Shown piece by piece: positions 48,033 through 57,761 of a stretch of DNA of 64,000 bases. The stretch is from positions 1,955,001 through 2,019,000 of the forward strand of contig NZ_CP034766.1 of assembly GCF_004006015.1 (NCBI RefSeq), read 5' to 3'. Source of the DNA: Rhodococcus sp. X156. GTDB lineage: Bacteria; Actinomycetota; Actinomycetes; Mycobacteriales; Mycobacteriaceae. The position numbers were made by a program, and so were the translations under genes. Numbering within the stretch: the first letter of the stretch is position 1; each line of letters begins with the position of its first letter. The notes under the pieces were generated by a model. The model searched no databases, was not told where the DNA came from, and worked only from the letters and a program-made list of their open reading frames with translations.

Positions 48033-49007
48033 ATGGCGCTGGACGCCGCGACCACCGACTTCATCGGCCTGATGGCCCAGGCCGGCGGCCCCCCGCTGCA
48101 CGAGCTCTCCCCCGCCGAGGCCCGCACCAAGCTGGCCGGCCTCGTCCCGATGTTCGGCACCGGCCCGGACGTCGCCGAGGCTCGCACCGAGCAGGTGCCC
48201 GGCCCCGGCGGCGACCTCGCGGTCCGGGTGCTGGTCCCGCACGGACGCCCACGCGGCGTCCTCGTCTACTTCCACGGCGGTGGCTGGGTGCTGGGCAGCC
48301 TGCCCGAGTACGAGGTTCTCGGGCGTCAGCTCGCCGCCCGCACCGGGTGCACCGTGGCGGTGGTGGACTACCGCCTGGCCCCCGAGCACCCCTACCCGGC
48401 CGCGGTCGGTGACGCCTGGGCTGCGCTGCAGTGGGCTTCCGCCACGCTGGCCAGCGCGGGGTCGGGCCCGGCCGGCCTGCCGCTGGTGGTGGCCGGCGAC
48501 AGCGCCGGGGGCAACCTCGCCGCCATCGTCAGCCGGCACGCCCGCGACGCCGGCGGACCGGACGTGGCGCTGCAGGTGCTGGTGTACCCGGTGACCGACT
48601 GCGACCTGGAGAGCGAGTCCTACGTGGACCCGGCCAACCAGGGGATGCTCAACCGCCACACCATGGCCTGGTTCTGGAACCACTACGTCACCGACGAGCA
48701 GCGCACCCACCCCGACGTCTCCCCGCTGCGCGCCGCCGACCTCGCCGGGCTCGCGCCGGCGGTGGTGGTCACCGCCGAGCACGACGTGCTGCGCACCGAG
48801 GGCGAGGCCTACGCGTCCGCGCTGGCCGAGGCCGGCGTGGACGTGACCCACCGCCGCTTCGACGGCCAGATGCACGGCTTCTTCACCATGGTGAACCTGC
48901 TGCCCGGCAGCGCCACGGCCATCGACTTCGTGGCCGAGCAGGTCGGCGCGCACCTGGACCAGGCCGGCACCGCCCCCACCCCCGAGAGCACAGGAGCGCA
49001 GCACTGA
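48033..49007 (+). CDS. Alpha/beta hydrolase, hormone-sensitive-lipase (family IV) esterase
   Basis: Esterase of 324 residues with oxyanion-hole motif HGGGW (81-85), nucleophile Ser157 in GDSAGG, acid Asp251 (AEHDVLR) and His281 (MHGFF). The ATG at 48033 follows GAGAGGA at suitable spacing. A longer reading from 47940 would cross operator copy 2 and is rejected. Its stop overlaps the next gene (TGATG), a Baeyer-Villiger-type monooxygenase. An ester-forming oxygenase with an esterase is a common catabolic pair: ketone to ester to alcohol plus acid. Confidence 0.92.
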   Translation: MALDAATTDFIGLMAQAGGPPLHELSPAEARTKLAGLVPMFGTGPDVAEARTEQVPGPGGDLAVRVLVPHGRPRGVLVYFHGGGWVLGSLPEYEVLGRQLAARTGCTVAVVDYRLAPEHPYPAAVGDAWAALQWASATLASAGSGPAGLPLVVAGDSAGGNLAAIVSRHARDAGGPDVALQVLVYPVTDCDLESESYVDPANQGMLNRHTMAWFWNHYVTDEQRTHPDVSPLRAADLAGLAPAVVVTAEHDVLRTEGEAYASALAEAGVDVTHRRFDGQMHGFFTMVNLLPGSATAIDFVAEQVGAHLDQAGTAPTPESTGAQH

Positions 49008-50608
49008 TGGCACCAGCAGAGGTCGACGCCGTGGTGGTGGGAGCGGGGTTCTCCGGGCTCTACATGGTGCACAAGCTGCGCGGGCTCGGGCTGTCGGTGC
49101 GTGGCTTCGAGGCCGGGGCCGACGTGGGCGGCACCTGGTACTGGAACCGCTACCCGGGCGCTCGCTGCGACGTGGAGAGCATGTACTACGCGTACTCCTT
49201 CGACCGCGAGCTGGTGCAGGAGTGGGAGTGGTCGGAGAAGTACTCGGCCCAGCCGGAGATCCTGCGCTACCTGCAGCACGTGGCCGACCGCCACGACCTG
49301 CGGCGCGACTTCACCTTCAACACCCAGGTCACCGCCGCCGCCTACGACGAGGCGTCGTCGCGGTGGACGGTGACCACCTCCGACGGCGACCAGGTCAGCG
49401 CCCGCTACTGCATCCTCGCGGTGGGCTGCCTGTCCTCGGCCAAGCTGCCGGAGATCCCCGGCCTGGAGCAGTTCCGCGGGCGCACCTTCCACACTGCCCA
49501 CTGGCCGCACGAGGGGGTGGACTTCACCGGGCAGCGGGTAGGCGTCATCGGCACCGGCTCCTCCGGCATCCAGGTGATCCCGCTGGTGGCCGAGCAGGCT
49601 GAGCAGCTCACCGTCTTCCAGCGCACGGCCAACTTCGCCTTCGCGGCCTTCAACGGCCCCGCGGACCAGGACAAGGTCAGCACCATCAAGTCCGACTACC
49701 CCAGCGTGGTGGCGAACATCCGCTCCTCCTACGGCGGCATCCCGCCGACCAACCCGCCGACGTCGGCGCTGGAGGTCACCCCCGAGGAGCGGCAGCGTCG
49801 CTACGACGAGCGGTGGCGCCTGGGCCTGCTGAGCGGCCCGTTGCAGGCCTTCTACGACATCATGGTGGACCGGGCCGCCAACGAGACCGCGGCGGAGTAC
49901 GTCCGCGAGCGGATCCGCGAGGCGGTCACCGACCCGGAGGTCGCGGAGGCGCTGTGCCCGCAGGGCTACGCCATCGGCACCAAGCGGCCGTGCCTGGGCA
50001 CCCGCTACTACGAGACCTACAACCGGGACAACGTCACCCTGGTGAACCTGCGCCAGACACCGCTGGTGGCGATCACCGAGCGCGGCATCGCCACCACCGA
50101 AGGCGAGCACGAGCTGGACTCGCTGGTCTTCGCCACCGGCTTCGACGCGATGACCGGCCCGCTGCTGGCCATCGACATCACCGGCCGCGACGGTGCCACG
50201 CTGCGGGAGGAGTGGGCGTCGGGCCCGATCACCTACCTGGGCCTGGCCACCGCCGGCTTCCCCAACATGTTCCACCTCACCGGCCCGGGCAGCCCCTCGG
50301 TGATCACCAACATGGCGGTCTCCATCGAGCAGCACGTGGAGTGGGTCGCCGACGCGGTGGCCTACCTGCGCGACCACGGCGTGGCGGCCATCGAGGCCGA
50401 CCCGCAGGCCCAGCAGGAGTGGACCCAGCACGTGCAGGAGGTCGCCTCCTACACGCTGTACCCGGAGACCGACTCCTGGTACACCGGGTCCAACGTGCCG
50501 GGCAAGCCGCGGGTCTTCATGCCCTACCTCGGCGGCGTCGGGCTGTACCGGGACAAGTGCCAGCAGGTCGCCGACGACGGCTATCCGGGGTTCGTGCTCA
50601 CCGCCTGA
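49007..50608 (+). CDS. Flavin-containing Baeyer-Villiger-type monooxygenase
   Basis: NADPH/FAD-dependent oxygenase of 533 residues predicted to convert a ketone to an ester or lactone. It has the FAD-binding GAGFSG (12-17), the type I BVMO fingerprint FRGRTFHTAHWP (156-167), the NADPH-binding GTGSSG (182-187), and conserved GGTWYWNRYPGARCDVES. It overlaps the esterase stop by one base. The substrate is unknown; cyclohexanone/steroid-type monooxygenases share this layout. Confidence 0.93.
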   Translation: MAPAEVDAVVVGAGFSGLYMVHKLRGLGLSVRGFEAGADVGGTWYWNRYPGARCDVESMYYAYSFDRELVQEWEWSEKYSAQPEILRYLQHVADRHDLRRDFTFNTQVTAAAYDEASSRWTVTTSDGDQVSARYCILAVGCLSSAKLPEIPGLEQFRGRTFHTAHWPHEGVDFTGQRVGVIGTGSSGIQVIPLVAEQAEQLTVFQRTANFAFAAFNGPADQDKVSTIKSDYPSVVANIRSSYGGIPPTNPPTSALEVTPEERQRRYDERWRLGLLSGPLQAFYDIMVDRAANETAAEYVRERIREAVTDPEVAEALCPQGYAIGTKRPCLGTRYYETYNRDNVTLVNLRQTPLVAITERGIATTEGEHELDSLVFATGFDAMTGPLLAIDITGRDGATLREEWASGPITYLGLATAGFPNMFHLTGPGSPSVITNMAVSIEQHVEWVADAVAYLRDHGVAAIEADPQAQQEWTQHVQEVASYTLYPETDSWYTGSNVPGKPRVFMPYLGGVGLYRDKCQQVADDGYPGFVLTA

Positions 50609-50705: not shown

Positions 50706-51575
50706 ATGACCACTGCGGATGCCGACGTGATCGACGAGGTGGTGGACACCGATCGGTACCCGTTGTCCGCCCCGGACTCCCCCGCCTGGGACCGGGCCGT
50801 GCTCGCCGCCCGCGAGCGGCTGCACGCCGACGGCTGCTGTGTGCTCACCGGCTTCGTCCGCCCGGAGCTGACTGCTCGGCTGCAGGCGGAGTCCGCGCTG
50901 GCGGCGCCGCTGGCCCACCACGACGTGGAGCTGGCCAACGTCTACAACACCCCGCCTGATCCCCACCTGCCCCCGGAGCACCCGGCGCAGGTGCTCCTGC
51001 CGCGCGGCAACGCCTTCGTCGCCCGCGACCAGCTGGACCCGGGGTTGCTCGTCCAGGGCCTCTACGCCAGCCCCCTGCTGCAACGGTTCCTCGCCGCGTG
51101 CTTCGAGCTGCCGGAGATCCACGAGCTGGCCGATCCGCTGGCCGGGCTGGTGCTCAACGTGCTCAGCGAGGGCCACTCGCACCCGTGGCACTTCGACACC
51201 AACGAGCTGGCCATCAGCATGCTCACCCAGGCGCCCGAGGCCGGCGGCACCTTCGAGTACTGCCCGGACATCCGCACGGCCGAGGACGAGCACCTCGCCG
51301 ACGTCGCCGCCGTGCTCGCCGGCGAGGGCGAGCACCGGGTCTCGCGGCTGCAGCCACGGGTGGGCGACCTGCAGCTGTTCCGCGGCCGCTACTCCCTGCA
51401 CCGGGTCACCGCGGTGCGGGGCGGCACCGAGCGGCACTCCGCGATCTTCGCGTACTCGGCCCGACCGGGCGTGGTGGGCTCGGTGGCGCGCACCCGCCAG
51501 CTGTTCGGCCGGGTGCTGCCCGAGCACCTCGCCGCCGAGGGCCGCGCGGTGCGGCTCGACCAGCTGATGGACTGA
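50706..51575 (+). CDS. Non-haem Fe(II)/2-oxoglutarate dioxygenase (HalD/BesD/ArpA-like fold, HxD type)
   Basis: A 289-residue protein with facial-triad residues His162 and Asp164 (PWHFDTNE) and His232 (GRYSLHRVT), and Arg243 (TERHSAIF) as likely 2-oxoglutarate ligand. The segments TQAPEAGGTFEYCPDIR and LQLFRGRYSLHRVT recall the family annotated as HalD/BesD halogenases and ArpA-like oxygenases. Because Asp164 is kept, hydroxylation rather than chlorination is expected. ATG 50706 has GGGAGG six bases upstream. The acyltransferase gene starts three bases after its stop, implying coupled function. Confidence 0.85.
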   Translation: MTTADADVIDEVVDTDRYPLSAPDSPAWDRAVLAARERLHADGCCVLTGFVRPELTARLQAESALAAPLAHHDVELANVYNTPPDPHLPPEHPAQVLLPRGNAFVARDQLDPGLLVQGLYASPLLQRFLAACFELPEIHELADPLAGLVLNVLSEGHSHPWHFDTNELAISMLTQAPEAGGTFEYCPDIRTAEDEHLADVAAVLAGEGEHRVSRLQPRVGDLQLFRGRYSLHRVTAVRGGTERHSAIFAYSARPGVVGSVARTRQLFGRVLPEHLAAEGRAVRLDQLMD

Positions 51576-51578
51576 CCG

Positions 51579-53360
51579 GTGGCCGCCACCACGACCTACG
51601 CCGCCGAGGAGGGCCTGCCCCGGGCCCCGCTGCCCAGCCTGCAGGACAGCTGCGACCGCCTGCTGCAGTGGAGCGCCCCGCTGCTGGACGCCGAGCAGCT
51701 GGCGGAGACCCAGGCCGCGGTGGTGGCGTTCCTGCGGCCGGGCTCCCCCGCGCACCGGCTGCAGGCGGCGCTGCAGCGCGAGCAGGACGAGGGGGCCGGC
51801 TGGCTGGAGGGGTTCTGGGCGAGTCGCTACCTGGGTCGCCGGGACCGCATCGCCGTCAACGCCAACTACTTCTTCCTGCTGGCGGACTCCCCGCTGGGCC
51901 AGGTGGAGCGGGCGGCGGCGCTCACTCGCGCCGCGGTGGACCACAAGCAGCGCCTGGACGCCGAGGCGGTGGCCCCGGTGCGCGAGCGCGACCAGGTGCA
52001 GTCGATGGAGCAGAACAAGTACCTGTTCTCCGCCACCCGCATCCCCGGCACGGAGCACGACACCGACCGCACCGCCTACAGCGCCACCGAGCCCGGCGCG
52101 TCCCGGCACCGCCACGTGCTGGTGCTCAGCCGCGGCCACGCGTTCCGGTTGGAGGTGCTCGACCACCACGACCGGCCCTACCCCGTGGAGCGGCTGGCGG
52201 CGGGGCTGCAGCGCGTGCTCGCGCAGTCGCAGGACTGGGCGCCTCCGAGCCGGGCGCTGGGCCACCTCACCACCCAGGACCGGGCCCAGTGGGCCACCGA
52301 CCGCGCCGAGCTGCTGGCGGGTGCACCGGAGAACGCCGCGTTCCTCGACCAGGTGGAGACGGCACTGTTCTGCCTGTGCCTGGACGACGTGGCGCCGGCC
52401 GACACCCGTGCGGCGTGCTGGCAGCTGCTGGCCGGCAGCGGCGCCAACCGCTGGTACGACAAGTCGTTCTCGCTGATCGTCGCGGCCGACGGCACCGCGG
52501 GACTCAACGGCGAGCACACCCACCTCGATGGCACCACCGTGGTCGGCCTCATCGACGCGCTGCTCGCACCGGGCGCCACGGAGACCACTCCGGCGGCCGA
52601 GGGCGAGCCCGGTGTCGCCGCGCTGGACGTCCGGCTGACCGCAGCGCTGGCCGAGCGGGTGGTGGCCGCGGCGGAGTCCTTCGCCGACTTCACCGCCGGC
52701 TGCGCCACCGAGCTGGTGAGCTTCGACCACCTCGGCTCGGCGCAGCTGAAGTCGCTGGGGGTCTCCCCCGACGCGTTCGTGCAGATGGCCTTCCAGCTGG
52801 CCCACCAGCGCGCGCGTGGGCTGGTGGGATCGACCTACGAGTCGGTGGCCACCCGGCAGTTCTGGCACGGCCGCACCGAGGCCATGCGGGTGGTCACGCC
52901 GGAGGTGCTCACCTTCGTGGCGGCGATGGACGACCCCGCGGTCGACCCGGCCGGGCGGGTGGCGGCGCTGCGGGCAGCGCTGGCGGCGCACACCGCTCGG
53001 GCCCGGGAGTGCAAGCAGGGTCTCGCCCCCGAGCAGCACCTGTGGGAGCTGCAGCTGACCCAGCAGCGTCGCGGTGCGGAGCTGGGCGCCACCGAGCCGC
53101 TGGCGCTGTACCACAGCCCCGGCTGGGTGGTGCTGCGCCAGGACTACCTCAGCACCAGCTCGGCGCCGTCGCAGTTCACCCAGTACTTCGGCTTCGGCTC
53201 CACCAGCGACCGGTGCATCGGCGTGGGCTACGTGCTGCTGCCCGAGCGCTTCCACCTGCACCTGAGCACCCCCCGGGCGGTGGACCAGCAGATGCAGGCC
53301 TTCGCCGCACAGCTGCGCTCCGTGGTTCCCGAGCTGCAGTCCCTGCTCGCGGGGGGCTAG
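51579..53360 (+). CDS. Choline/carnitine O-acyltransferase family protein (bacterial)
   Basis: Moves acyl groups between CoA and a hydroxylated quaternary amine such as carnitine in the known family. The 593-residue protein spans the full fold. It shows RIAVNANYFFLL, NKYLFSATRIPG, YDKSFSLIVAADG, catalytic His313 in LNGEHTHLDGT, YESVATRQFWHGRTEAMR (420-437) and the STS motif LSTSSAPSQF (525-527). GTG 51579 is three bases after the dioxygenase stop. Its TAG stop shares CTAG with the opposing Mur ligase stop. This family is common in eukaryotes and sporadic in bacteria. The acceptor is unknown. Confidence 0.9.
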   Translation: MAATTTYAAEEGLPRAPLPSLQDSCDRLLQWSAPLLDAEQLAETQAAVVAFLRPGSPAHRLQAALQREQDEGAGWLEGFWASRYLGRRDRIAVNANYFFLLADSPLGQVERAAALTRAAVDHKQRLDAEAVAPVRERDQVQSMEQNKYLFSATRIPGTEHDTDRTAYSATEPGASRHRHVLVLSRGHAFRLEVLDHHDRPYPVERLAAGLQRVLAQSQDWAPPSRALGHLTTQDRAQWATDRAELLAGAPENAAFLDQVETALFCLCLDDVAPADTRAACWQLLAGSGANRWYDKSFSLIVAADGTAGLNGEHTHLDGTTVVGLIDALLAPGATETTPAAEGEPGVAALDVRLTAALAERVVAAAESFADFTAGCATELVSFDHLGSAQLKSLGVSPDAFVQMAFQLAHQRARGLVGSTYESVATRQFWHGRTEAMRVVTPEVLTFVAAMDDPAVDPAGRVAALRAALAAHTARARECKQGLAPEQHLWELQLTQQRRGAELGATEPLALYHSPGWVVLRQDYLSTSSAPSQFTQYFGFGSTSDRCIGVGYVLLPERFHLHLSTPRAVDQQMQAFAAQLRSVVPELQSLLAGG

Positions 53361-54904
53361 CGCCGCCGGTCCAGCACCTGGGCCAGCTGCTCGCGGTCGT
53401 CGAACGGACGCACCTGCTCGCCGTAGACCTGGTGGCCGTCGGCGCCGCGGCCGGCCACCACCAGCACGTCGCCCGGCCTGGCGCGAGCCGCGGCCTGCTC
53501 CAGGGCCCGGCGGCGGTCGGGCTCCACCACAAGCTCGCCGCCACGCACCGAGCGGGCCCCGGCGGCCACCGCCTCCCGGACGCGGTCGGCAGGCTCGGAG
53601 CGCGGGCTCTCGTCGGTGACCACCACCACGTCGGCCAGCTCGGCGGCGGTGGCACCGAGGCGGAAGCGCTTGCCCGGGTCGCGGTCACCGGTGGCCCCCA
53701 GCACGACCAGCAGCCGGCCGGTGGTCAGCGAGCGCAGGAACGGCAGCAGCGAGCGCTGCCCGGCACTGTTGTGCATGTAGTCCACCAGGGCGAGGAACGG
53801 CTGCCCGACGTCGACGCGCTCCAGCCGGCCCGGGACGCGGGCCAGCTGTTCCATCCCGTGGACCGCACCGCGCAGGTCCACCCCCGCCAGCACCAGCGAG
53901 GTGAGCGCCGTGAGCGCGTTGGCCACCTGGTGCGGACCCAGCAGCGCCAGCGACACGGGCAGCCGCCCGGACGGGGTGTGCACGGTGAACCGGGTGCCCT
54001 CGGCGTCACAGGCGATGCCGTCGGCGAACACGTCGGCCGTGGGGTCGCGGGTCGAGTGGGTCCACACCGGCAGGTCGGTGCTGGCGCAGAGCCGGCGGCC
54101 GTACGGGTCGTCCACGTTGACCACGGCCGCGCCGGCCCGCTCGGGGGTGAACAGGGCGGCCTTGGCGGCGTAGTACTCCTCCATGGTCCGGTGGTAGTCC
54201 AGGTGGTCGCGGCCCAGGTTGGTGAAGGCCACCACCCGGAAGCGGATGCCGTCCACCCGCCGCTGGCTCACCGCGTGCGAGGAGACCTCCATGGCCGCCG
54301 CCAGCGCGCCCTCGTCCCGGAACCCGGCGAGCAGCCGCTGGAGCACCGCCGCCTCCGGGGTGGTGCGCTGGGCCGGCCAGGAGCCGGCGGGGCTGCGGAT
54401 CGCGATGCCGGTGATCATCGCGTTGCGCACACCCGCACCGGACAGGCCCGCGTCAACCAGGTAGGTGGCACTGGTCTTGCCGTTGGTCCCGGTGACGCCG
54501 TAGACGTCCAGCCGGGCGGAGGGGTGGTCGTGGATCCAGGCGGCCAGCGGGCCGACGTGACGACGGGGATCGGACACGACGAGGCAGGGCAGGGCCGTGG
54601 CGGGCCGGTCGCTGAGCACGGCCACCGCACCGCGGGCCGCCGCCTCGGCCTCGAAGGTGAGCCCGTGCTCCCGCTCGCCCGGCAGTGCCACGTAGAGGTC
54701 TCCGGCGGTGACCGTCCGGGAGTCGTCGCTGACGCCGGTGACCGACCGAGCGAGCTCCCCGGTCGTCCCCGTGGCGGCGAGGCCCAGGTGGGCGGCGACG
54801 TCGCACACGGTGCGGCCCAGCGCAGCGGGGGCCGCAGGGGGGCGAGTCATCGGCACCGACGCTGCCAGCCAGAAGTCCACTGCCAGCCAGAAGTCACGGT
54901 TCAT
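53357..54904 (-). CDS. MurE-like Mur ligase with altered amino-acid-recognition motifs
   Basis: ATP-dependent amide ligase fold, about 515 residues. It keeps the MurE-like UDP-binding domain (GVSDDSRTVTAGDLYVALPG), P-loop GVTGTNGKTSATYL (137-150), MEVSSHA, and the carbamyl-Lys region EEYYAAKAALF. The MurE diaminopimelate motif DNPR is replaced by TDESPRSEP, and the usual VDYAHTPD is VDYMHNSAGQ, closer to cyanophycin-synthetase/MurT HN-AG. A peptidoglycan MurE role is therefore doubtful. ATG 54904 has GGGAG upstream; ATG 54850 is an alternative. It overlaps the acyltransferase tail to tail. Confidence 0.8.
   Translation of the reverse strand: MNRDFWLAVDFWLAASVPMTRPPAAPAALGRTVCDVAAHLGLAATGTTGELARSVTGVSDDSRTVTAGDLYVALPGEREHGLTFEAEAAARGAVAVLSDRPATALPCLVVSDPRRHVGPLAAWIHDHPSARLDVYGVTGTNGKTSATYLVDAGLSGAGVRNAMITGIAIRSPAGSWPAQRTTPEAAVLQRLLAGFRDEGALAAAMEVSSHAVSQRRVDGIRFRVVAFTNLGRDHLDYHRTMEEYYAAKAALFTPERAGAAVVNVDDPYGRRLCASTDLPVWTHSTRDPTADVFADGIACDAEGTRFTVHTPSGRLPVSLALLGPHQVANALTALTSLVLAGVDLRGAVHGMEQLARVPGRLERVDVGQPFLALVDYMHNSAGQRSLLPFLRSLTTGRLLVVLGATGDRDPGKRFRLGATAAELADVVVVTDESPRSEPADRVREAVAAGARSVRGGELVVEPDRRRALEQAAARARPGDVLVVAGRGADGHQVYGEQVRPFDDREQLAQVLDRRR
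54862..54897. repeat. 18-bp tandem duplication in the Mur ligase N-terminal codons
   Basis: Two adjacent copies of CTGCCAGCCAGAAGTC plus two bases (54862-54879, 54880-54897). If the 54904 start is used they encode DFWLAV/DFWLAA. If 54850 is used they lie in the leader. Confidence 0.8.
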
Positions 54905-55106
54905 CGTGACACTCCCACGGGCACAACGCGCATCGTCGGCTGAGCTGGTCCCGGTCGGTGGGACGAGCACGAGCGAGCGCACACCGCCAGGTGAGAATTT
55001 CCGCCAGGGGGGTGGAACGTGGCGTGAGTTACTGTTACCGTCAATCTCACCAACGGTCATTGACACAATCTACGACGCGACCAACCAGACTCCCCAGGGG
55101 GAAGAC

Positions 55107-56018
55107 ATGACCACCGCACCGGCCATCACCGACCAGCGCACCACTGCCGACGAGGACGTGTCCCGCCGGCTCCTGGAGTCGGCTGCGGCCCTGTCCTACG
55201 ACCCCGCCGAGGAGGTCGACTGGGAGTCCCCGCTGGACCCCACGCTGCACGGCCTCAACCCGGAGTGGAGCACCCTCTACGGGACGGCGCTGTGGGACGA
55301 GATGACCGAGGAGCAGCGCATCACGCTCACTCGCCACGAGGTGTGCTCGATCATGAGCACCGGCATCTGGTTCGAGATGATCCTGCAGCAGATGGTGCTG
55401 CGGGACATGTACGTCACCGACACCGCGCGCTCGGACTTCCAGTTCGCCCTCACCGAGATCGCCGACGAGTGCCGGCACTCCATCATGTTCGCCCGGGCCT
55501 GCGAGAAGATGGGCGCCTCGTCCTACTTCCCCACCCGCCTGAGCGTGGAGCTGGGCCGCGCCTTCAAGAGCGTGGCCAACGCCGAGGTCGCCTACGGCGG
55601 GATCCTGGTGGCCGAGGAGGTCCTCGACGTCATGCAGCGTGACTGGATGCGCGGGGAGAACGTGCTGCCGATGGTCCGGACGACGAGCAAGATCCACGTC
55701 GTCGAGGAGTCCCGGCACATGAAGTTCGCGCGCCAGGAGATCCGCGAGCAGATGGAGGGTGCGAGCGCCACGCGCCGCCGCACCAGCAGCCTGGTCATCG
55801 CCATCGCTGCCTACGTCATCGTCTCCAACATGGTGAACAAGGGCGTCTACGCCGCGGCGGGGCTGGACACCGACCGCGCGGTGCGCGAGGCCAAGAACAA
55901 CGAGCACCACAAGGCGATGATGCGGTCCAGCTGCGCCCACCTGATGGACTTCCTCGCCCAGTGCGGGCTGCTCAGCCGCCCGGCCATGCGCATCTACCAG
56001 CGCGCCAACATGCTCTGA
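55107..56018 (+). CDS. AurF-like di-iron oxygenase
   Basis: Ferritin-like four-helix protein of the p-aminobenzoate N-oxygenase (AurF) family, 303 residues. Likely metal ligands are Glu90 (GIWFEMIL), Glu121 and His124 (IADECRHSIMFA), Glu170/171 (VAEEVLD), and Glu200/201 with His204 (VVEESRHMKFA). ATG 55107 has GGGGGAAG upstream. The family oxidises aryl amines or similar substrates and needs external electrons; the ferredoxin-reductase fusion 57 bases downstream is a credible partner. It is divergent from the Mur ligase over a 200-base promoter region. Substrate unknown. Confidence 0.9.
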   Translation: MTTAPAITDQRTTADEDVSRRLLESAAALSYDPAEEVDWESPLDPTLHGLNPEWSTLYGTALWDEMTEEQRITLTRHEVCSIMSTGIWFEMILQQMVLRDMYVTDTARSDFQFALTEIADECRHSIMFARACEKMGASSYFPTRLSVELGRAFKSVANAEVAYGGILVAEEVLDVMQRDWMRGENVLPMVRTTSKIHVVEESRHMKFARQEIREQMEGASATRRRTSSLVIAIAAYVIVSNMVNKGVYAAAGLDTDRAVREAKNNEHHKAMMRSSCAHLMDFLAQCGLLSRPAMRIYQRANML

Positions 56019-56075
56019 GCCGAGCCACCCACCTTCCGTCTCTCCGGACCTCACACACAGGGACCTCCACCGGCC

Positions 56076-57761
56076 ATGGCCTACGCGATCACCCAGACCT
56101 GCTGCAACGACGCCACCTGCGTGTCGGTGTGCCCGGTCAACTGCATCCACCCCACTCCCGAAGAGCCTGACTTCGGGACCACGGAGATGCTCTACGTCGA
56201 CCCGCAGACCTGCATCGACTGCGGGGCCTGCGCCGACGCCTGCCCGGTGGACGCGATCTTCCCGGTCGACCGGCTCATGGGCCGCGACACGGTGTTCGCC
56301 GAGCTGAACCAGCAGTACTACGCCGACCGGCCGACCGACAACGAGTGGTCGGCGCCGCGGTTCCCCCGCTCGCTGCCGCGCACCCCGGAGGGCCCTGCTC
56401 GGGTCGCCGTGGTGGGCACCGGACCGGCCGCCTGCTACGCCGCGGAGTCGCTGCTGCGCATCGGCGCCAGCGTCACCATGATCGACCGTCAGCCGGTGCC
56501 CGGCGGGCTCGTCCGGTTCGGCGTCGCACCCGACCACCCGTCCACCAAGAAGATCGGCGACAGCTTCGCCAGCCTGTTCCAGCACCCGCGCCTGCAGATG
56601 CACCTCAACGTGGAGGTGGGTACGCACGTCAGCCACGAGGAGCTGGCGGCGCACCACCACGCCGTGGTCTACGGGGTGGGCGCCGCGGCCGACAACCCCC
56701 TGGGCGTGCCCGGCGAGGACCTGGCGGGCAGCATCTCCGCCACCGCGTTCGTGGCCTGGTACAACGCCTACCCCGATGCGCACCCCACCGTGTCGAACAC
56801 CCCGATCGACCTCTCCGCCGAGCGGGCCGTGATCGTCGGCAACGGCAACGTGGCGCTGGACGTGGCGCGGATCCTGGCGTCGGACCCCGAGGATCTGGCC
56901 CGCACCGACATCGCCGACCACGCGCTGGAGGCGCTGCGCGCCAGCAACATCCGCGAGGTGGTGCTCATCGCGCGCCGCGGTCCCGAGCAGGCGGCGTTCA
57001 CCCGCCCCGAGCTGCTCGCGCTCAAGCACCTGCCCGGCGTGCGGCTGGTGCTCGACTCCACCACGGTCACCGCCGACGACGTGGCTGCGGCCGCGCCGGG
57101 CAGCAAGACGGCGCTGTTCAGCGACGTCGACGCCGAGGAGGTCGACTGGCAGTCACCGCCGCCGGCAGGCAAGCGCATCGTGTTCCGCTTCCTGTCGTCG
57201 CCGCTGGAGCTCACCGGGGACGGCCGCGTCGAGGGAATCGCGCTGAGCCGCAACATCCTGGAGGAGCGCGACGGCCAGGTGGCGGTGACGGCGACCGGCG
57301 ACCGGGACGAGCTGCCCACCGGGCTGGTGCTGCGCTCCACCGGCTACCGCGGCCGCCCGCTGCCGGGCCTGCCGTTCGACTCCACGACCGCCACCGTGCC
57401 GCACGAGGCCGGGCGGGTGCTGGACTCCCCCGGGGGGGCTCGACTGGACGGCACCTACGTGGTGGGCTGGATCAAGCGCGGACCCTCCGGTGGCATCGGC
57501 GCCAACCGCACCTGCGCGGAGGAGACGGTGGACTCCATCATCGACGACGCTGCTGCCGGTGCGCTGCCGTCCCCGCGCGGCTCCGCCAGGGCGTTCGCCC
57601 GGCTGGTGCGCCAGCGGCAGCCGCAGGTGATCACCCGCCAGCAGGCGCTGGCCATCGACCAGGCTGAGCGCGAGCTCGGTGCCAAGGTGGGTCGGCCGCG
57701 GGTCAAGCTGGCCAGCACCGAGGAGCTGCTGGCTGCGGTCAAGAAGCCGCTGCGCCGCTAG
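56076..57761 (+). CDS. fprB: Ferredoxin-fused ferredoxin-NADP+ reductase (FprB type)
   Basis: A 561-residue flavoprotein with an N-terminal bacterial ferredoxin domain (residues 1-65). Two cluster motifs are visible (CCNDATCVSVCPVNCIHP and CIDCGACADACPVDAIFP). The adrenodoxin-reductase-like domain has FAD motif VVGTGPAACYAAE, GGLVRFGVAPDHP, the NADP motif IVGNGNVALDVARIL, and C-terminal YVVGWIKRGPSGGIGANRT. It resembles mycobacterial FprB. Transcribed with the di-iron oxygenase gene, it could reduce that enzyme directly through its own ferredoxin domain. Confidence 0.93.
   Translation: MAYAITQTCCNDATCVSVCPVNCIHPTPEEPDFGTTEMLYVDPQTCIDCGACADACPVDAIFPVDRLMGRDTVFAELNQQYYADRPTDNEWSAPRFPRSLPRTPEGPARVAVVGTGPAACYAAESLLRIGASVTMIDRQPVPGGLVRFGVAPDHPSTKKIGDSFASLFQHPRLQMHLNVEVGTHVSHEELAAHHHAVVYGVGAAADNPLGVPGEDLAGSISATAFVAWYNAYPDAHPTVSNTPIDLSAERAVIVGNGNVALDVARILASDPEDLARTDIADHALEALRASNIREVVLIARRGPEQAAFTRPELLALKHLPGVRLVLDSTTVTADDVAAAAPGSKTALFSDVDAEEVDWQSPPPAGKRIVFRFLSSPLELTGDGRVEGIALSRNILEERDGQVAVTATGDRDELPTGLVLRSTGYRGRPLPGLPFDSTTATVPHEAGRVLDSPGGARLDGTYVVGWIKRGPSGGIGANRTCAEETVDSIIDDAAAGALPSPRGSARAFARLVRQRQPQVITRQQALAIDQAERELGAKVGRPRVKLASTEELLAAVKKPLRR

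What the first reader, a model, noticed from the sequence alone, without database searches (positions are those of the whole stretch)
50706..53360. Fe(II)/2OG dioxygenase coupled to a bacterial choline/carnitine acyltransferase
The dioxygenase stop and the acyltransferase GTG are three bases apart, and both proteins keep their catalytic residues (H162/D164/H232; H313, STS motif). In the classical carnitine pathway a 2OG dioxygenase makes the hydroxyl that carnitine acyltransferases then acylate, so a hydroxylate-then-acylate module for a small amine or amino acid is a natural hypothesis. The dioxygenase belongs to a HalD/BesD/ArpA-like family, not the butyrobetaine-hydroxylase family, so the acceptor may be new. 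The motifs are read directly; the function is inferred.
Basis: partly seen in the sequence, partly recalled or inferred. Interest (0 to 1): 0.72.

Follow-up and report, generated by a model that had tools for sequence, protein, structure and literature searches.

The report
Conserved hydroxylase–acyltransferase operon in actinomycetes
Two neighbouring genes, usually with a methyltransferase gene between them, form a conserved actinomycete operon that probably hydroxylates and then acylates a small charged molecule other than carnitine, hinting at an undescribed carnitine-like metabolite.

Summary
Window 50706-51575 is a HalD-family Fe(II)/2OG dioxygenase (DIOX) with an intact H162/D164/H232 triad; 51579-53360 is a full-length choline/carnitine acyltransferase (CAT). 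The pairing is conserved: CAT lies beside DIOX, or one gene away, in 80 of 80 fetched DIOX loci (14 named genera), and in a 296-genome class sample all 29 genomes with close DIOX have CAT next to it. The window's operon lacks it; a 38%-identical homologue lies elsewhere in the genome. The Arg that binds carnitine's carboxylate is Gln in 108 of 108 DIOX-type CAT rows but Arg in both DIOX-less CATs examined, so carnitine is unlikely to be the acceptor. Distant DIOX relatives (38-46%) have no CAT nearby and mostly precede a DddP-like M24 protein, once beside a betaine transporter gene. Best reading: methylate (often), hydroxylate, then acylate (probably short acyl) a small cationic, probably onium, zwitterion. 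Co-conservation and the Arg-to-Gln change are shown; chemistry and acceptor are inferred.

The parts
50706..51575 (+). DIOX: HalD-family Fe(II)/2-oxoglutarate dioxygenase, 289 aa; H162-x-D164...H232 triad, hydroxylase-type (Asp present, unlike BesD-type halogenases)
   Evidence: ORF and translation; PF23169 HalD; fold like HalB / lysine hydroxylase 7jsd, Z 21-22; triad invariant in 81 of 81 rows
51576..51578 (+). three-base gap between DIOX stop and CAT GTG; the place where an intact methyltransferase gene sits in 66 of 80 related loci
   Evidence: sequence; comparison of loci
51579..53360 (+). CAT: choline/carnitine acyltransferase family protein, 593 aa; His313, STS motif, Tyr420, Thr433 kept; Gln486 in place of the carnitine-carboxylate Arg; Phe537 at the acyl-chain gate
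   Evidence: ORF; PF00755 511 bits; residue comparison

Best explanation
DIOX and CAT are the core of a conserved actinomycete operon acting in series on one small cationic zwitterion. DIOX hydroxylates an aliphatic carbon of an amino-acid-derived substrate, probably an onium compound (betaine-like). CAT then transfers an acyl group, probably short (acetyl to propionyl range), from CoA to the new hydroxyl. In most genomes the MT encoded between them adds methyl groups, probably to the nitrogen, making the quaternary amine that a CAT pocket recognises; in the window genome this step would be done by an unlinked homologue or be unnecessary. The acceptor is not carnitine: the carboxylate-binding Arg is replaced by Gln throughout the DIOX-paired CATs. 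SHOWN: gene content, pairing, catalytic residues, Arg-to-Gln, sister contexts. INFERRED: order of steps, N- versus O- or carboxyl methylation, identity of acceptor, acyl length.
For: CAT beside DIOX or one gene away (gap at most 1.6 kb) in 80 of 80 fetched loci, 79 on the same strand and one (L011) on opposite strands. In the class sample of 296 genomes 29 have DIOX at 55% identity or more and all 29 have CAT next to it; 2 of the 31 CAT genomes lack DIOX. MT intact between them in 66 of the 80 loci. Arg518-equivalent is Gln in 80 of 80 named rows and 28 of 28 further rows, Arg in both DIOX-less CATs. The acyl gate (Met564-equivalent) is Phe in 105 of 108 rows, against Gly in long-chain CPT2. 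DIOX folds like HalB, HalD, BesD and lysine hydroxylase, enzymes of free cationic amino acids. Of 7 relatives at 38-46% identity, 5 precede an M24 protein; the one of these scanned with NCBIfam scores best with DMSP lyase DddP (below that model's cut-off), and its next gene is a ProX/OpuAC-type betaine-binding protein. A second of the seven (L141) has a partial OpuAC-like match about 7.5 kb downstream. At about 33% identity, relatives lie near MttB-type methyltransferases and a Rieske protein nearest GbcA.
Against: No enzyme was assayed and no product is known. No MT match lies between the genes in 12 of 80 loci, one more has only a remnant (L051) and one an in-frame stop (L073); 10 of the 12 genomes have no MT homologue anywhere, so methylation is not universally required. 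The onium contexts occur in distant relatives only, and several contexts show no such marker (L144, L146, L147, L148, L149) or point to amino acids (L132, L133). Arg-to-Gln weakens but does not exclude binding of a carboxylate. The MT model matches only generic class I folds, so its methyl acceptor is open.
Confidence: 0.55

Rival explanations
1. Ordinary carnitine metabolism: DIOX is a non-canonical gamma-butyrobetaine hydroxylase and CAT an ordinary carnitine acyltransferase.
For: Matches the logic of the eukaryotic pathway; CAT keeps the Thr and Tyr of the carnitine site; some DIOX relatives lie near betaine genes.
Against: The carboxylate Arg is Gln in every DIOX-type CAT row examined (108 of 108), while the two DIOX-less CATs keep Arg. 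The Asp before it is Glu and the Thr two after the GRT Thr is Ala in all 108. DIOX is of the HalD family.
Confidence: 0.13
2. The pair acts on an unmethylated cationic amino acid (lysine, ornithine, arginine or a derivative): DIOX hydroxylates it as HalD-family hydroxylases do, and CAT O-acylates it; MT is a side branch (for example carboxyl or late N-methylation).
For: Closest folds are lysine and ornithine enzymes; distant relatives lie by an amino-acid transporter of Lys/Arg/Orn type (L133) or a dimethylargininase-like gene (L132), both below the models' cut-offs; 10 of 12 MT-less genomes have no MT at all.
Against: CAT-family acceptors known to me are quaternary amines (recalled); MT is intact in 66 of 80 loci; the nearest CAT-less sister operons point to onium compounds.
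Confidence: 0.2
3. CAT is a bacterial choline-type acyltransferase and DIOX a clearing or tailoring enzyme for a different molecule; they are linked by regulation, not by substrate.
For: Like choline acetyltransferase (Asn), these CATs lack the carnitine Arg.
Against: The choline enzyme's Val at the GRT site is Thr in all 108 rows; strict pairing across genera suggests a shared pathway.
Confidence: 0.07

Closest known systems
Eukaryotic carnitine system (gamma-butyrobetaine hydroxylase, then carnitine acyltransferase; recalled)
   Same: A 2OG dioxygenase makes a hydroxyl on a quaternary amine and a PF00755 enzyme acylates it
   Different: DIOX is HalD-family; carboxylate Arg replaced by Gln; methyltransferase usually in the operon; bacterial two- or three-gene operon
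HalD / BesD / HalB and the lysine hydroxylase 7jsd
   Same: Fold (Z 21.1-21.9, 224-239 residues aligned, rmsd 3.2-3.6), iron triad; Arg100, Glu140 and Asp143 line up with the same residues of lysine hydroxylase
   Different: Only 14-22% identity; Asp ligand present so not a halogenase; partnered with CAT; substrate unknown
CrAT, ChAT, CPT2 (solved PF00755 enzymes)
   Same: Homology over most of the length, catalytic His, STS, TYES and GRT motifs
   Different: DRHL/DNHL is EQHL; the residue two after the GRT Thr is Ala; acyl gate Phe
DIOX-M24 (DddP-like) operons in other classes and phyla
   Same: DIOX homologue at 38-46% identity as first gene
   Different: M24 protein instead of CAT; no CAT or MT match in these loci

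Membership tests
HalD-type Fe(II)/2OG oxygenases (PF23169) | Profile score above Pfam's cut-off | tested here: met
   53.0 bits against cut-off 26
HalD-type Fe(II)/2OG oxygenases (PF23169) | Fold of HalB/BesD | tested here: met
   AlphaFold model mean pLDDT 92.1; the ten best entries are HalB, HalA, HalD, BesD and 7jsd at Z 21.1-21.9, then another lysine-hydroxylase entry at 18.3, next group 16.9
BesD-type radical halogenase | Loss of the iron-binding Asp (Gly/Ala instead; recalled) | tested here: not met
   Asp164 in 81 of 81 rows
Choline/carnitine acyltransferase family (PF00755) | Full-length profile match, catalytic His, STS | tested here: met
   511 bits over 2-573 of 574; His and the last Ser of STS in 80 of 80 named rows
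Carnitine acyltransferase (carnitine-specific) | Arg binding the carnitine carboxylate (Arg518 of CrAT; number and role recalled) | tested here: not met
   Gln486 in window, Gln in 108 of 108 DIOX-type rows
Choline acetyltransferase | Asn at the Arg site and Val at the GRT site | tested here: not met
   Gln and Thr instead
Gamma-butyrobetaine hydroxylase (BBOX) | GBBH-like N domain PF06155 | tested here: not met
   DIOX shows no match to it in Pfam at E 0.001. The search of the window's whole genome also found none, but no control genome rang, so that search proves nothing
Onium/betaine-specific hydroxylase | Activity on a betaine | not testable with these tools
   Only gene context of distant relatives:

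The most novel reading that the evidence does not exclude
Actinomycetes make an undescribed class of acylated hydroxy-betaines, a bacterial parallel to acylcarnitines, by an operon DIOX-MT-CAT in which a HalD-type hydroxylase replaces butyrobetaine hydroxylase and a non-carnitine CAT acylates the product. A concrete candidate is O-acyl gamma-hydroxy-delta-N-trimethylornithine (or the 5-hydroxy-trimethyllysine analogue), which contains the carnitine-like unit Me3N+-CH2-CH(OH)-CH2- with an amino-acid end instead of a lone carboxylate.
Probability: 0.3. Interest if true: 0.85.

Novelty: new variant of a known kind. Interest (0 to 1): 0.62.

Why it matters
Acyltransferases of the carnitine family are uncommon in these bacteria (31 of 296 genomes of the class; 4 of 296 full-length in the phylum sample), and I found nothing in print on their acceptors in ten searches of the open PMC library. 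This operon gives a strictly conserved partner enzyme, a residue change that argues against carnitine, and a methyltransferase clue, so it makes 'what do these bacterial carnitine-family acyltransferases acylate?' directly testable. A positive answer would add a new acylated onium metabolite class and a HalD-family hydroxylase with a new kind of substrate.

Tried and rejected
Neighbours as part of the system: the flavin monooxygenase (49001-50608), alpha/beta hydrolase, amidohydrolase, MurE-like ligase, AurF and ferredoxin reductase were tested by tblastn against the 85 loci L003-L087. None is conserved beside DIOX: MurE, hydrolase and amidohydrolase hit none of them, AurF and reductase hit one (L055), and four loci have 32-34% flavin monooxygenase hits (L013, L015, L050, L062). 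In clustering of predicted neighbours over the same 85 loci, the most widespread cluster besides DIOX, MT and CAT reached 31 loci, the rest 19 or fewer. Cluster 0 of that call lumped MT with CAT, so MT was separated with its own tblastn. My first count of MT (68 of 80) took in a remnant (L051) and a copy with an in-frame stop (L073); the recount is 66 intact.

Butyrobetaine hydroxylase in the window genome: none, but no control rang, so uninformative. OpuAC-type binding proteins do exist elsewhere in the window genome, not near the operon. Plasmid-borne CAT: no match at E 1e-5. Promoter and terminator scans: nothing. MT fold search: generic class I methyltransferases only, TM about 0.3-0.4 by query length, no acceptor clue. 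MT of L009 against Pfam, NCBIfam and PDB sequences: no hit; a sub-threshold Methyltransf_23 hit for L060. BesD substrate-contact residues were sought in PMC13244439 with no passage found, so no claim on lysine contacts is made.

Literature: ten counted searches in the open PMC library listed no paper that I recognised as describing this operon; subscription journals are mostly not covered. I saw search listings only, plus find-passages of PMC13244439 (none found), PMC11852590 (one passage) and PMC10187165 (title and abstract passages). CrAT residue numbers, the roles of Arg518, Thr465, Tyr452 and Met564, the identity of 4b28 as DddP, and 'CAT acceptors are quaternary amines' are recalled.

Full report
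WHAT IS THERE. Window 50706-51575 (+) encodes a 289-residue protein and 51579-53360 (+) a 593-residue protein; three bases separate the first stop from the second start. The first matches Pfam HalD (53.0 bits, cut-off 26), the second Choline/Carnitine O-acyltransferase over its whole length (511 bits). Neither matches an NCBIfam model at E 0.001. The AlphaFold model of DIOX (mean pLDDT 92.1) is closest to HalB, HalA, HalD, BesD and the lysine hydroxylase 7jsd (Z 21.1-21.9), then another lysine-hydroxylase entry (18.3), then other groups from 16.9 down. The HxD...H triad has Asp164, so a hydroxylase-type iron site; triad and Arg243 are invariant in 81 of 81 rows. The genome has one PF00755 match and one DIOX match.

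THE PAIR IS CONSERVED. A scan of one genome per species gave 375 stretches encoding DIOX relatives; the best 80 were kept (56-65% identity). CAT lies beside DIOX, or one gene away, in 80 of 80 (largest gap 1531 bases), 79 on the same strand and one (L011) on opposite strands. Record titles name 14 genera (Actinokineospora, Saccharopolyspora, Saccharomonospora, Amycolatopsis, Actinomadura, Nocardia, Gandjariella, Protofrankia, Frankia, Patulibacter, Pseudonocardia, Streptomyces, Labedaea, Actinophytocola) plus MAGs; Patulibacter belongs to another class, Thermoleophilia. Because this set was chosen by DIOX similarity, I also ran samples not chosen that way. Of 296 genomes of the class, 31 have CAT and 32 have any DIOX match; 29 have DIOX at 55% identity or more. 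All 29 have CAT on the same contig and strand next to it or one gene away (coordinates). Two have CAT without DIOX (G139, G326), three have only a distant DIOX and no CAT (G267, G287, G318). A Fisher test on 29/0/2/265 treating genomes as independent gives 4e-38, which overstates it because genomes are related. In a sample of 61 close relatives (window genome included) 6 have DIOX, each with CAT beside it, while the one other genome of the window's genus in that sample has none: the operon is patchy but its two core genes travel together.

A THIRD GENE. In 66 of the 80 loci, and in 5 of 5 loci from close relatives (L003-L007), an intact gene of roughly 270-340 residues lies between DIOX and CAT. 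One further locus (L073) has a full-length match with an in-frame stop near its start, one (L051) only a remnant, and 12 none; the window has none. The protein carries an 'LDIGCSYGINAALL'-like motif, has no NCBIfam family or relative among PDB sequences, a sub-threshold Methyltransf_23 hit in one member, and a model (mean pLDDT 89.8) that matches generic class I SAM methyltransferases. In the 12 genomes whose locus lacks it a homologue elsewhere was found in 2 (60% identity in Labedaea, 36% in Streptomyces endophytica). The window genome has a 38% homologue at G000:C1:1105862-1106677, with no sign of DIOX or CAT beside it. In the class sample the other two genomes with no MT match at the operon (G306, G338) also have such a distant homologue, against 3 genomes that have one without DIOX-CAT (G186, G271, G296). 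G076 keeps only a short MT remnant between DIOX and CAT and has a second MT-CAT pair on another contig. On a quick CAT tree the MT state needs at least 5 changes, 3 forced by starred branches (6 if L051 is scored as lacking MT), and the window sits in a starred set of 13 rows of which 11 lack MT (quick method, long window branch, so its exact place is unsure). Thus DIOX-CAT is the core and MT a frequent but dispensable third part.

THE ACCEPTOR IS PROBABLY NOT CARNITINE. Printed alignments show CrAT and CPT2 with DRHL, ChAT with DNHL, and the window CAT with EQHL. In a family alignment this position is Gln in 80 of 80 rows (window plus 79 named loci; L074 left out because its CAT is split into two frames) and in 28 of 28 further rows, some of which come from the same genomes. 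The two DIOX-less CATs both read IDRHL. The Asp before it is Glu and the residue two after the GRT Thr is Ala, both in all 108 rows, while Tyr, Thr and the STS Ser are kept. By recall, this Arg binds carnitine's carboxylate and Asn takes its place in choline acetyltransferase, so loss of Arg coinciding with the DIOX partner argues for a different acceptor that still has a quaternary or cationic nitrogen. The acyl gate (Met in CrAT, Gly in CPT2) is Phe in 105 of 108 rows, which by recall fits short acyl groups. Only two DIOX-less CATs were available, from one genus, so the contrast rests on a small outgroup.

CLUES FROM DISTANT DIOX RELATIVES. In a phylum sample of 296 genomes, DIOX relatives at 28-46% occur in 11 genomes (plus one fragment, G532) and none has a full CAT; G553 has a 59-position PF00755 fragment on another contig. 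Seven loci at 38-46% were read (two from plasmids, L140 and L141; five). In 5 of 7 an M24 protein follows DIOX. The one from Caballeronia (L140) scores best with the DMSP lyase model DddP (330 bits, below its cut-off of 600) and with M24 structures 4b28 and 4s01. In that locus the next gene is an OpuAC protein nearest ProX (77 bits, cut-off 215); in the Pseudomonas locus (L141) a partial OpuAC-like match lies about 7.5 kb downstream. At about 33%, one Mesorhizobium and two Rhodobacterales loci carry MttB-family proteins and the first also a Rieske protein nearest GbcA (NCBIfam scores below cut-off). Against this, the Pantoea, Klebsiella, Shinella, Rahnella and Hyphomicrobiales loci read show no such marker; L133 has an amino-acid transporter of Lys/Arg/Orn type and L132 a dimethylargininase-like neighbour, both below cut-off. 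The common theme is small cationic zwitterions, with onium compounds nearest the window's group; this is suggestive, not proof.

MECHANISM. I favour: (MT) N-methylation, DIOX hydroxylation, CAT O-acylation. Shown: genes, pairing, residues. Inferred: order, acceptor, methyl position, acyl length.

NOVELTY. All three protein kinds belong to known folds; the combination and the non-carnitine CAT group were not found in ten searches of the open PMC library (listings only), which misses most subscription journals.

Noticed in passing
window 53357-55066 (-): MurE-like ligase (TIGR01085 417 bits) convergent with CAT, overlapping its stop by 4 bases; whether it is a second MurE paralogue was not checked.
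   Followed up: no
window 55092-57761 (+): AurF-type N-oxygenase followed by a ferredoxin/NADP reductase-like gene; the same pair (76% and 65% identity) lies upstream of DIOX in Amycolatopsis marina (L055:4292-6926), the only such case among the 85 loci searched.
   Followed up: partly
L140, L141, L152, L154, L156: A sister operon, DIOX relative followed by a DddP-like M24 protein, in Proteobacteria and other Actinomycetota; possibly an uncharacterised onium-compound catabolic operon.
   Followed up: partly
L074:8929-10787: CAT of Streptomyces endophytica is split in two reading frames (disrupted gene or sequencing error).
   Followed up: partly
L086 (7759 bases): Contig labelled Candidatus Melainabacteria carries an actinobacterial-type DIOX-MT-CAT operon; possibly a mis-binned contig.
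   Followed up: no
L132:7179-8849: A 32%-identical DIOX relative directly follows a dimethylargininase-like gene, a possible arginine-derivative pathway.
   Followed up: no
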